DNA of 64,000 nt from Patescibacteria group bacterium (lineage in GTDB: Bacteria > Patescibacteriota > Minisyncoccia > UBA6257 > 2-01-FULL-56-20): contig JAGWKM010000001.1 in assembly GCA_028865305.1 (NCBI GenBank), positions 1 through 64,000 of the forward strand, in the 5' to 3' direction. The notes under the pieces were generated by a model. That model saw only the letters and a list, made by a program, of their open reading frames with translations, made no database searches and was not told where the DNA came from. Shown here in pieces: positions 46,885-56,539 of this stretch (within the stretch, counting starts at the first letter, position 1; every line of letters starts with the position of its first letter). Position numbers and translations under genes: made by a program.

Positions 46885-47378
46885 CGACCAAAAACTGCGC
46901 TTGCGCGCAGTTTTTGGTCTGATGCCAACGGCATCGTCGGGTAGCCACCTTGATATCCATAATACCCGGGTTTTTATGGATGTCAAACAATTCAGGAGCC
47001 AGCAACAATCACGCGGACCGCTGGGGAGTCGAACCCCAAACTGTCAGGTGGCTACCCAACCGTGATACCGTTTCACCAGCGGCCCGTGAGCCCCCATCTC
47101 CAAAATCCTCCAGCCCGCGTTGCGCGAGAATTTGCGCAGCCGCTAGGCGGGGCAAGGAGACAATAGTTCCACCATGGCTCCGCAGCCCCAACAACGCGGC
47201 TGCGCAAATTATCCGCAACCCAAGGGCTTCGGCCAAATGCCGCAAGGGCTGTGTTCCAGGGAATCCGCGGTGCGTCCAGCACGGCGGATTCCCTGCGCCT
47301 TGCCCTTGCGGCATCTGGCCGAAGCGCGGGCGGAGGATTTTGGAGATGGGGGCTCGCCACTGGCATCGGGATCGTATC
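46885..47378 (-). ncRNA. Structured RNA candidate, copy A: 3-way-junction domain, tRNA-like domain, conserved hairpin, anti-anticodon arm, terminator
   Basis: Collinear with 56054-56499; tRNA-like GGGCCGC..GTGA/TCAC..TGGGG-TTCGACT-CCCCA-GCGGTCC; terminal hairpin GACCAAAAACTGCGC/GCGCAGTTTTTGGTC. Confidence 0.75.
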
Positions 47379-47524
47379 ATAATCGAGTTAAATTTTTCCT
47401 AAACTAAAAATGAACATTTTTTAATGAAATTCCGTATTTTTACAGCAAAATTGGCACTTTTTTGATTTTCCCGCCTCGATTAAATAAAAAAGTAAACGAT
47501 TTCTCGTTTACTTTTTTAAAGTAT

Positions 47525-54064: not shown

Positions 54065-55291
54065 TTAAAGCGGCGAAGAAGAAGCCGCTGTTTGAATGTC
54101 TTGGATAATCTGATTCGGATCGGTATTGAGCGCATAGCTAGCCCAAGCTCGGACCAGCGGGCTTTCGCTGTGCTGGTATCGCTGTAAAATTTGCATCGCT
54201 ATCGAATGTTCGGGCTCTGGGCCGTTGATCCTCAAAAGCATCAGTCCACCATGCAGCGCGTCGCTTTGGAGTATTGGCTCATCGGTATTGATAGCATTGA
54301 GCATAAAGTTATAATCATCTGTCGTCATGAACGATTCTATTGTCGTTTTTACAAAGGCCGAATCATTTAACTGAGGGTTTTTCAAGGACGCTAGTGCTGC
54401 GTTCGCGCTCGTAAACGCAATATCTAGGCTGCTAAACTTATTCGCATTTTGTTTTATTGCGGTTATTTCTTGTTGATATTTCAAAAAAACATCTTTTTGG
54501 CTGATATTACCATGACCATCGTAAAATGAAATCAGGGCTGGAACAGCCGACTCTTCCACTTTTTCACCGATGAGCCATTGAATCATCGTAGCATCTTTTG
54601 CTTCTTCCATTTTCCTTCCCCAAACGATCAAGGCTTGTAACAAAAGTTCTGCTCTTCTGGGATTGCTCGAGCTACTATAAGTGTTGGCAAGAATAATCAT
54701 TCGTCTGGTAAATCGCAGGGTGTTCGCCGGACTGAATGGTGATGGTACATCTGAAATTGGTGTCTTCGGAATAGGAAAATGTTCAGGGGAAAAAGAGAAA
54801 TTCTGTTTAGCAGCCATTGTCATCAAAAATTGCTCATCTTGCGTTCCAAGATTAATCTTATTTTCATCAGACCCGCCATAAACGTTATCCCATGTGCCGC
54901 TCACGTGATGAAAAATTGGGGTGGGCGTATCGTAGCCGAAATACATTATATAGTCGTCAGCTCCATTTCCGGGTTGGTTTGGAATTTTAATTCCGAGATC
55001 AGCAAGAGAAGTTTGGTGTTGTAAACCGAAACTCGGAGTTGTTGTCGCACTAAAATTAGCAAGGTTAACTGCCGAAGTCGCATTCCTTTCCTGAACATAT
55101 GTGTACATAAATTCTCCTAAAAAGCGAACTTCTCCGCCAGTTATGATGTCCGTTATTGCCAGGAGGGCAATTATTAAAATAATTGGCAGAATAAGGAAAT
55201 TAAAAAGTCGCCGCTTAAAAAAGCTCGGCTTGTTTGCCGGACTGGGAGGGGCGGGAACAATCGCTGGCGGATCTTGCGGAGGCAAATCCAT
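54065..55291 (-). CDS. Hypothetical membrane-anchored protein
   Basis: Long ORF; single N-terminal TM, Pro-rich N-terminus. Confidence 0.75.
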   Translation of the reverse strand: MDLPPQDPPAIVPAPPSPANKPSFFKRRLFNFLILPIILIIALLAITDIITGGEVRFLGEFMYTYVQERNATSAVNLANFSATTTPSFGLQHQTSLADLGIKIPNQPGNGADDYIMYFGYDTPTPIFHHVSGTWDNVYGGSDENKINLGTQDEQFLMTMAAKQNFSFSPEHFPIPKTPISDVPSPFSPANTLRFTRRMIILANTYSSSSNPRRAELLLQALIVWGRKMEEAKDATMIQWLIGEKVEESAVPALISFYDGHGNISQKDVFLKYQQEITAIKQNANKFSSLDIAFTSANAALASLKNPQLNDSAFVKTTIESFMTTDDYNFMLNAINTDEPILQSDALHGGLMLLRINGPEPEHSIAMQILQRYQHSESPLVRAWASYALNTDPNQIIQDIQTAASSSPL

Positions 55292-55349: not shown

Positions 55350-55405
55350 CTACACTCGTCATTTTCAGTTGAAAAGGTAGCGGCCGGAGCAATGCTCCGG
55401 CCGTC
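55350..55405. repeat. Dispersed repeat F copy 2
   Basis: See 53973-54024. Confidence 0.85.
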
Positions 55406-55962
55406 TATTTATCATCTCGGCCTTTGAGCCGGGATCCTTGCTTCCCAAATTTTATCGTCATCCCGAGGCATTCGTCACCATGTTCGCTCACTTGATAGGC
55501 AATGTTAATTATTTTTCCCTTTCGGGCTATTCCTTTTAATAGTAATTGGTAATCGATTTTATCCCTAAAAAGAAGATTAATAATAACCAAGTATTTGGTT
55601 TTTATGGAAAAAAGTGAAGCCAATATGTCCGCGAATTTGTTTTTCCCGAATTTTTCGGCTTCGCCGAGGAAAAGATGTGCGAGGACAAGATCAACTTTCC
55701 GGTTCCTGAAGTTTTTGATGTCGCTTTCGATGATTTTGTAGTTCTTTTCCGGCACGCACTCCAAAATCGGCTGGATTTTCCGCTCGTCGCCGGGGTAGAC
55801 GACGGCCTGAACTATATTTTTGGGAAATCGATGCGCTAAATAATGGATGCTTGTCCGTCCGGCACCCATATCAATAACCTTCTTTATTTCAGGATTCCTG
55901 ATGTCCGCGAAGAGGGTATCCAGGAGTTTTTTCTGTGATTTGCTGATTTTCCATGCCGACAT
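55405..55962 (-). CDS. Hypothetical protein (methyltransferase-like fold possible)
   Basis: EIKKVIDMGAGRTSIHYLAHRF resembles motif I. Confidence 0.6.
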   Translation of the reverse strand: MSAWKISKSQKKLLDTLFADIRNPEIKKVIDMGAGRTSIHYLAHRFPKNIVQAVVYPGDERKIQPILECVPEKNYKIIESDIKNFRNRKVDLVLAHLFLGEAEKFGKNKFADILASLFSIKTKYLVIINLLFRDKIDYQLLLKGIARKGKIINIAYQVSEHGDECLGMTIKFGKQGSRLKGRDDK

Positions 55963-56053: not shown

Positions 56054-56499
56054 TAGCCCCCATCCCGAAACTACGCCGCCCGCGCTCCTGGCCAAATGCC
56101 GCAAGGGCTAGGCGCAAGAAAATGTCGTACTCTCCGTACGGCATTTTTGCGGCAACAACGGCCTTGCGGCATTTGGCCGGAGCCCTCCGGGTCGCGGCTG
56201 ATGTGCGTGAGGGCGTCGTTATTCCTCGGAGCCAGGGCCCGCTCTTGTCTCCGAGGAAAGCCTAGCCCTCGCGTACATCAGCCCGCAACGCGGGCTGGAT
56301 TATTTTGGAGATGGGGGCTGATATCACAGCCAGCCTACCACCTGGCAATTCGGAGTCCGAATCTCCGCCGCTCCACAATTGGTGGATGCCGGATGGCCTG
56401 ACATCCATAGCACGGCGCATACTATGGATATCAAGATAGTAGGCTGGTGTGGCGCCTTAACGCACCACTTTCAAGAGCCGGGTTTCCGCCCGGTTTTTG
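56054..56499 (+). ncRNA. Structured RNA candidate, copy B (tRNA-like domain 5'-truncated)
   Basis: Collinear with copy A; conserved GCCAAATGCCGCAAGGGC, CGGAGCCA, TTGTCTCC, GCCTAGC, TTTTGGAGATGGGGGCT, TGACATCCATA..TATGGATATCAAG; ends CCGGGTTTCCGCCCGGTTTTT. Confidence 0.78.
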
Positions 56500-56539
56500 A
56501 GTTGCATCCCAAACCGCTTAGAGTATAATTGAGAACGAA

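What the first reader, a model, noticed from the sequence alone, without database searches (positions are those of the whole stretch)
46885..47378. Candidate new ~450-nt structured RNA family (copy A, minus strand) built around a tRNA-like domain
On the minus strand the order is: (i) a 3-way junction closed by AGCCCCCATCTCCAAAATCC/GGATTTTGGAGATGGGGGCT, enclosing GCTTCGGCCAGATGCCGCAAGGGC/GCCCTTGCGGCATTTGGCCGAAGC and AATTTGCGCAGCCGC/GCGGCTGCGCAAATT; (ii) a tRNA-like domain with paired acceptor, a GTGA/TCAC D stem, a canonical T arm and exactly 23 nt from position 26 to 48; (iii) the hairpin TGACATCCATA..TATGGATATCA; (iv) GGTGGCTACCC, complementary to GGGTAGCCACC in the anticodon region of the tRNA-like domain; (v) a strong terminal hairpin. 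The anticodon stem is poorly paired as a tRNA, so the competing long-range helix is probably the real fold. I do not recognise this as tmRNA, RNase P, SRP, 6S, or a group I or II intron.
Basis: partly seen in the sequence, partly recalled or inferred. Interest (0 to 1): 0.92.

Follow-up and report, generated by a model that had tools for sequence, protein, structure and literature searches.

The report
tRNA-like gene with matching antisense RNA

Summary
The sequence features are real, but the finding joins two unrelated things. (1) The three-way-junction part (47089-47354) belongs to a palindromic MITE-like family (ends GAACCCATCTCAAAAAT, often flanked by TA) that also occurs alone in many genomes of the order, even inside tRNA and 23S rRNA genes. 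(2) The rest (about 46886-47085, minus strand) is a distinct module found without the MITE at five other loci: two more in this genome and one each in three other genomes. RNA1 is a tRNA-Ala-like cloverleaf. RNA2 follows it: a sigma-70-like promoter, then a roughly 70-nt RNA with hairpin and terminator whose 5' end pairs 14-15 bp with RNA1's anticodon loop and 5' anticodon strand. In four aligned copies 10 of these 14 pairs change compensatorily, and the anticodon stem itself is also kept by compensatory change, so both states appear selected. Cognate pairs in one genome are energetically orthogonal (-19 to -30 versus -6 to -15 kcal/mol). No Rfam, phage, plasmid or IMG/VR match; it is not tmRNA. 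Best reading: an antisense RNA controls a tRNA-like RNA by opening its anticodon arm, perhaps an RNA-only toxin-antitoxin pair. Function and expression are untested.

The parts
47376..47403 (-). Promoter P1 of RNA1 (TTTAGG-16-TATGAT)
   Evidence: read; same promoter upstream of the copies in C309 (TTTAGA-16-TATGAT, 9/12), C328 and G005; lies upstream of the mobile element, which was inserted between P1 and the tRNA-like body
47089..47354 (-). M1: MITE-like palindromic element (the 'three-way junction'), inserted in the RNA1 leader
   Evidence: family with ends GAACCCATCTCAAAAAT..ATTTTTGAGATGGGTTC, 94-275 bp, often flanked by TA, found alone elsewhere; common fold
47360..47364 (-). left arm of P0 helix GCCAG (leader)
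   Evidence: pairs with CTGGC 46998-47002; equivalents CCAAT/ATTGG, GCCGG/TTGGC, GCCAACG/CGTTGGC and GTCA/TGAC in C309, C328, G005 and G089 (read by eye; not counted by a tool)
47015..47085 (-). RNA1: tRNA-Ala-like cloverleaf, 8-nt anticodon loop GTAGCCAC, G3-U70
   Evidence: CM
46998..47002 (-). right arm of P0 helix CTGGC (trailer)
   Evidence: see left arm
46959..46986 (-). Promoter P2 of RNA2 (TTGACA-16-TATTAT, 11/12)
   Evidence: 16-nt spacing in all five G000/G005 copies, TTGACA-18-TATAAT (12/12) in G871
46950..46986 (-). inverted repeat TTGACATCCATA..TATGGATATCAA over P2
   Evidence: helix 5 (one-sided changes only); not significant in G871
46886..46953 (-). RNA2: ~65-70-nt antisense RNA (start inferred from P2)
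   Evidence: position after P2; folds
46936..46950 (-). RNA2 5' segment AGGTGGCTACCCGAC complementary to RNA1 anticodon loop and 5' stem strand
46921..46935 (-). RNA2 internal hairpin GATGCC-GTT-GGCATC
   Evidence: fold
46886..46919 (-). RNA2 terminal hairpin, terminator-like (T-run in its 3' arm)
   Evidence: fold; the terminator scan did not flag it
56055..56319 (+). M1 copy in locus B
   Evidence: 72% identical to copy A's M1
56320..56374 (+). RNA1 of locus B, 5' half missing (P1 -10, acceptor 5' strand and 5' D arm lost next to M1)
   Evidence: ARAGORN finds no tRNA here
56398..56425 (+). P2 of locus B (CTGACA-16-TACTAT)
56432..56500 (+). RNA2 of locus B; complement reduced to 10 bp (56439-56448)
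   Evidence: 30 of 5000 shuffles

Best explanation
A compact two-gene RNA module. RNA1 is a tRNA-Ala-derived cloverleaf expressed from its own promoter. RNA2 is a short antisense RNA made from a second promoter immediately downstream, on the same strand. RNA2's first 14-15 nucleotides are complementary to the whole anticodon loop plus the 5' strand of RNA1's anticodon stem, so RNA2 binding opens the anticodon arm and switches RNA1 off. Each locus has its own loop/antisense pair, so paralogs in one cell do not cross-react. Shown by sequence: anatomy, covariation of both alternative helices, promoter conservation, orthogonality of predicted energies. Inferred: expression, pairing in trans, and which RNA is the effector. 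My most likely reading of the purpose is that RNA1 is a harmful or inhibitory pseudo-tRNA (altered anticodon loop, often with the G3-U70 mark that alanyl-tRNA synthetase reads) and RNA2 its antidote, that is, an RNA-only toxin-antitoxin-like module; this last step is a hypothesis.
For: Helix anticodon:antisense: 14 pairs, 98% paired, 10 pairs changed on both sides in only 4 sequences; with all partners slid by 1-3 columns the whole structure falls from 96% to 32-46% paired. Anticodon stem: 100% paired, 4 of 5 pairs compensatory. Complement of 14-15 bp in six intact loci, 0 of 5000 shuffles each. Of 107 distinct tRNA genes in the loci, ordinary ones reach at most 9 nt of complement; the ones above that are these loci. 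Cognate duplex -19 to -30 kcal/mol within the genome versus -6 to -15 for non-cognate. P2 promoter directly 5' of the complement in all seven loci. Distant members G089 and G871 keep the layout with unrelated loop and antisense sequence. Neighbouring protein genes differ at every locus (comM-like ORF by eye), so these look like stand-alone RNA genes. Sporadic presence (3 of 245 genomes of the order) with four copies in one genome, and a copy that lost part of RNA1 but kept RNA2 (locus B), fit a toxin-antitoxin pattern.
Against: No expression data. Only seven loci in four genomes. The aminoacylation mark is not universal (C309 has G3-C70, C328 has C3/U70), which weakens a miscoding-tRNA toxin. 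No terminator separates RNA1 from RNA2, so a read-through transcript could form the helix in cis. The toxin role of RNA1 rests on analogy and distribution.
Confidence: 0.5

Rival explanations
1. One RNA: a single ~200-nt transcript from P1 in which the tRNA-like domain, the P2-region hairpin and the downstream strand form a pseudoknot (cis switch); the promoter-like P2 is secondary.
For: No terminator between RNA1 and RNA2; a leader/trailer helix (P0) appears compensated in several copies (by eye); the inverted repeat over P2 is stable in the G000/G005 copies (z -1.9 to -3.6).
Against: P2 resembles the promoter consensus in all seven loci, up to 12/12 in G871; the hairpin shows only one-sided changes and is not significant in G871; no downstream gene for a cis switch to control.
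Confidence: 0.25
2. RNA2 is the effector (a regulatory small RNA with a 5' seed acting on mRNAs) and RNA1 is a stable tRNA-shaped sponge that titrates it.
For: RNA2 has typical small-RNA anatomy (5' single-stranded seed, hairpin, terminal hairpin). tRNA-precursor spacers acting as sponges for RyhB/RybB are known in E. coli (own knowledge).
Against: The seed differs completely between paralogs and lineages, as expected of a self-contained pair rather than of a regulator of conserved mRNAs; targets could not be searched genome-wide. Conservation of the cloverleaf (elbow, acceptor) exceeds what a sponge needs.
Confidence: 0.15
3. RNA1 is a working specialised tRNA (missense or +1-frameshifting, with 8-nt anticodon loop) whose decoding is controlled by RNA2, used for regulated recoding rather than as a toxin.
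For: Loops keep C and A at the positions equivalent to 36 and 37 in all seven loci (read); the extra nucleotide in the loop resembles +1-frameshifting tRNAs such as SufB2 (PMC7803779, abstract); G3-U70 in four loci.
Against: U33 missing in three of seven loops; charging determinants inconsistent; C36 may be inherited from tRNA-Ala.
Confidence: 0.1
4. One ~450-nt structured RNA including the three-way junction.
For: The parts adjoin in loci A and B.
Against: Each part occurs without the other; the junction is a MITE-like element that also sits in 23S rRNA and tRNA genes; in A it separates P1 from the tRNA-like body, in B it replaces the 5' half.
Confidence: 0.02

Closest known systems
Pseudo-tRNA tRNA-Other of Bacillus cereus (PMC3399842)
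   Same: tRNA-shaped RNA that does not work in translation and has a regulatory role
   Different: I found no mention of a dedicated antisense partner in the passages read; Trp anticodon; different lineage; no paralog series with matched partners
RNA-only toxin-antitoxin modules, such as CreTA (PMC8501985)
   Same: both partners are RNAs encoded side by side; translation is the suspected target
   Different: CreT is a mini-ORF RNA that sequesters a tRNA and CreA is a CRISPR-like guide that needs Cas proteins; here the suspected toxin is itself tRNA-shaped and the antitoxin is directly complementary, with no Cas
Plasmid and type I antisense pairs (ColE1 RNAI/RNAII, CopA/CopT, hok/sok; own knowledge)
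   Same: antisense RNA opposing a structured loop, with locus-specific orthogonal pairs
   Different: antisense overlaps its target on the opposite strand there; here both genes lie in tandem on one strand and the complement is separate DNA that must co-evolve; no replicon or peptide found
tmRNA (RF00023)
   Same: alanine-type acceptor with G3-U70 in some copies
   Different: RNA1 is a full contiguous cloverleaf without a tag reading frame; a real tmRNA is elsewhere in this genome
T-box riboswitch
   Same: pairing to an anticodon loop
   Different: 14-15 bp that open the stem instead of a codon-like specifier contact; no downstream gene, no Rfam match
MITEs (for the three-way-junction part)
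   Same: terminal inverted repeats, TA on both sides of several copies, no transposase gene inside
   Different: unusually conserved internal fold (terminal stem, two long arms, mini-hairpin) with arms that differ in sequence but stay paired

Membership tests
tRNA (RF00005) | cloverleaf with acceptor, D, anticodon and T arms | tested here: met
   ARAGORN detects the four intact copies in G000/G005 and both distant ones; arms paired
tRNA (RF00005) | score above Rfam gathering threshold | tested here: inconclusive
   copy A not called; G089 RNA1 scores 47 bits against 29; G871 RNA1 not called
tRNA (RF00005) | 7-nt anticodon loop with U33 and a readable anticodon | tested here: not met
   8-nt loop in all five G000/G005 copies, U33 missing in three; met only in G089 and G871
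tRNA-Ala | G3-U70 | tested here: inconclusive
   present in A, G005, G089, G871; absent in C309 and C328
tmRNA | tRNA-like ends joined through a tag-coding region | tested here: not met
   contiguous cloverleaf; no RF00023 match in the window; the genome's tmRNA is at C242:56915
RNA-only (type VIII-like) toxin-antitoxin | antitoxin RNA encoded next to and neutralising the toxin RNA | tested here: inconclusive
   adjacent genes, specific complementarity and orthogonality shown; neutralisation untested
RNA-only (type VIII-like) toxin-antitoxin | toxin RNA inhibits growth | not testable with these tools
   needs expression experiment
T-box riboswitch | Rfam match and regulated downstream gene | tested here: not met
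   no match; neighbouring genes differ and are often convergent
MITE (part 47089-47354) | terminal inverted repeats, target duplication, several copies, no transposase gene inside | tested here: met
   as a family; TA flanks on both sides in L105, L113, L116, L128, L037. The copies in loci A and B themselves have variant ends (AGCCCCCATCTCC) and no visible TA duplication

The most novel reading that the evidence does not exclude
A natural RNA-only toxin-antitoxin class in which the toxin is a miscoding or frameshifting tRNA and the antitoxin is a dedicated antisense RNA that unzips its anticodon arm, diversified into mutually orthogonal pairs within one genome.
Probability: 0.25. Interest if true: 0.92.

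Novelty: categorically new. Interest (0 to 1): 0.75.

Why it matters
A tRNA-shaped RNA paired with its own anticodon-arm antisense RNA, with co-evolving orthogonal paralogs, matches no RNA family or toxin-antitoxin type that I could find. If the toxin reading holds, it would show that tRNA itself can serve as an addiction factor and give ready-made orthogonal tRNA/antisense switches. Even if not, it is a new covarying RNA family in bacteria whose non-coding RNAs are little known, and it makes a testable model from a short sequence. The attached MITE-like family, which sits inside a 23S rRNA gene and tRNA genes, is a caution for structured-RNA discovery in these genomes.

Tried and rejected
Rfam scans: only unrelated micro-RNA-like chance hits and sub-threshold tRNA-Sec. 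tmRNA: rejected. One-RNA model with the three-way junction: rejected. Inverted repeat as a protein operator: a Taylorbacteria locus has a similar palindrome in front of a winged-helix-like ORF (L056), but the repeat has a different sequence in G089 and is not significant in G871, so a conserved operator is unlikely; not pursued. Second-tier covariance hits (CM R1, at most 66 bits) were ordinary tRNA genes in the sequences read, except L090/G089, found by testing for the downstream complement. L148, L150, L151 and L152 are not members. No match in phages or plasmids, and none in the IMG/VR pattern scans. MAFFT could not align G089 and G871 correctly, so covariation counts use the four close copies only. 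Literature searches gave no description of this module.

Full report
Check of the observation. No Rfam family reaches its threshold there, and permissive scans give only chance hits. ARAGORN independently calls 47013-47085 a tRNA of unknown type with a four-base anticodon.

Two modules, not one RNA. DNA searches of the window's own genome and 60 relatives split the finding. The left part (three-way junction) and the right part (tRNA-like plus downstream strand) occur separately: the left part alone on contigs C244, C20, C219 and C243 and in other genomes; the right part alone on C328, C309 and in relative G005. The left part is a member of a palindromic element family with ends GAACCCATCTCAAAAAT, mostly 160-275 bp, frequently with TA on both sides, without room for a transposase gene; the end sequence occurs in 13 of 61 genomes of the order examined. 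That is MITE anatomy. Members share a fold of terminal stem, two long arms and a mini-hairpin. One sits inside a 23S rRNA gene and one inside a tRNA-Glu-like gene. In locus A it lies between promoter P1 and the tRNA-like body; in locus B it has replaced P1's -10 box and the 5' half of the tRNA-like body. The A and B copies have variant ends (AGCCCCCATCTCC) and no visible TA duplication, and are each other's closest relatives (72% identical), so one ancestral insertion followed by duplication is possible.

The RNA module. Five close copies (A, B, C309, C328 in this genome; G005) and two distant ones (G089 in another family of the same order, G871 in another family of the same phylum) share one layout: P1 promoter; tRNA-like RNA1; spacer; P2 promoter; complement; hairpin; terminal hairpin. 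RNA1 resembles tRNA-Ala: G1-C72 acceptor, intact D and T arms, T loop TTCGA in the intact copies, G3-U70 in A, G005, G089 and G871, but G3-C70 in C309 and C3/U70 in C328. The anticodon loop has 8 nt in the five close copies and 7 in the distant two. Ordinary tRNA-Ala genes and a real tmRNA are elsewhere in the genome.

Pairing evidence. In the four close copies that align well, the helix between the anticodon arm (5' strand plus loop) and the strand after P2 has 14 pairs, 98% formed, 10 with changes on both sides; sliding all partners by 1-3 columns drops the whole structure from 96% to 32-46% paired. The anticodon stem is itself 100% formed with 4 of 5 pairs compensated. These two helices exclude each other, so selection appears to keep two states. 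The complement is 14-15 bp in all six intact loci (0 of 5000 shuffles each); in damaged locus B it is 10 bp (30 of 5000). Among 107 distinct tRNA genes in the fetched loci, no ordinary tRNA exceeded 9 nt of downstream complement, and this test uncovered G089. Predicted duplex energies form a diagonal: within this genome cognate pairs are -19 to -30 kcal/mol and non-cognate -6 to -15.

Two promoters. P2 is TTGACA-16-TATTAT in A and C309 (11 of 12), 9 of 12 in the other close copies, weaker but present in G089 (9 of 12 in a shifted register), and a perfect TTGACA-18-TATAAT in G871; P1 is also visible, TTGACA-17-TATTGT in G871. The complement starts a few nucleotides after the -10 box in every locus, as expected if it is the 5' end of a small RNA. 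The inverted repeat that covers P2 is clear in the close copies, marginal in G089 and not significant in G871, so it is not a defining part.

Distribution and context. Covariance searches found the module in 3 of 245 genomes of the order, in one further genome among 384 sampled across the phylum, and in no additional genome in 387 of the class or 56 of G871's class. The distant members score near ordinary tRNAs, so more may be missed. There is no match in phage or plasmid collections and none in two IMG/VR pattern scans. Neighbours are different genes each time (RNase Y, CTP synthase, UvrB and FAD-linked oxidase, phosphoglycerate kinase, a methyltransferase, a glycosyltransferase with an IS1595 transposase nearby), so it is not a leader of one operon. 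The genome is a 388-contig assembly with 8% estimated contamination, so the count of four copies needs confirmation.

Mechanism. Shown at sequence level: tRNA-like RNA1, adjacent promoter-driven complement, two mutually exclusive conserved helices, orthogonality. Inferred: RNA2 binds RNA1 and opens its anticodon arm, switching it off. The purpose is open. I favour an RNA-only toxin-antitoxin-like pair because of sporadic distribution, several orthogonal paralogs, locus B (RNA1 broken, RNA2 kept), and because alanyl-tRNA synthetase reads G3-U70 and not the anticodon (own knowledge), so altered-loop tRNA-Ala would be charged and could misread or shift frame, as SufB2 with its enlarged loop does (PMC7803779). 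Against it: two copies lack G3-U70. Rivals are a cis switch in one transcript and a small RNA with a tRNA-shaped sponge.

Comparison. Pseudo-tRNA tRNA-Other (PMC3399842) is the nearest for RNA1; CreTA (PMC8501985) the nearest RNA-only toxin-antitoxin. Neither has, as far as I read, a tRNA-shaped partner with a dedicated anticodon-arm antisense. I file the MITE part as a new member of a known kind and the RNA module as new.

Noticed in passing
window 47089-47354 and 56055-56319; L105-L134: Order-wide MITE-like family (ends GAACCCATCTCAAAAAT, TA target) with a conserved fold whose arms differ in sequence but remain nearly perfect inverted repeats; no autonomous element identified.
   Followed up: partly
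L030:859-1125 (G011:C11): A copy of this MITE-like element lies inside a 23S rRNA gene (RF02541 match runs from 349 to 2001 across it), and a shorter relative lies just upstream of that gene.
   Followed up: partly
L015:719-906 (G000:C219) and L014 (G000:C20): Copies interrupt tRNA-like genes: a tRNA-Glu-like gene on C219 between D arm and anticodon arm, and apparent tRNA halves flanking a copy on C20.
   Followed up: partly
L056:792-827 (Candidatus Taylorbacteria JACPHR010000019.1): Near-perfect 36-bp palindrome TGACATTCATACATTCCTAGGAATGTATGAATGTCA directly before an ORF that looks like a winged-helix regulator; probably a self-regulating operator, similar by chance to the P2 repeat.
   Followed up: no
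G000 assembly: The window's genome is 2.0 Mb in 388 contigs with 8% contamination while its relatives are 0.4-1.4 Mb; it may be a mixed bin.
   Followed up: no
window 55405-55962 and 54065-55291, minus: Two ORFs of 185 and 408 aa next to locus B have no Pfam match.
   Followed up: no
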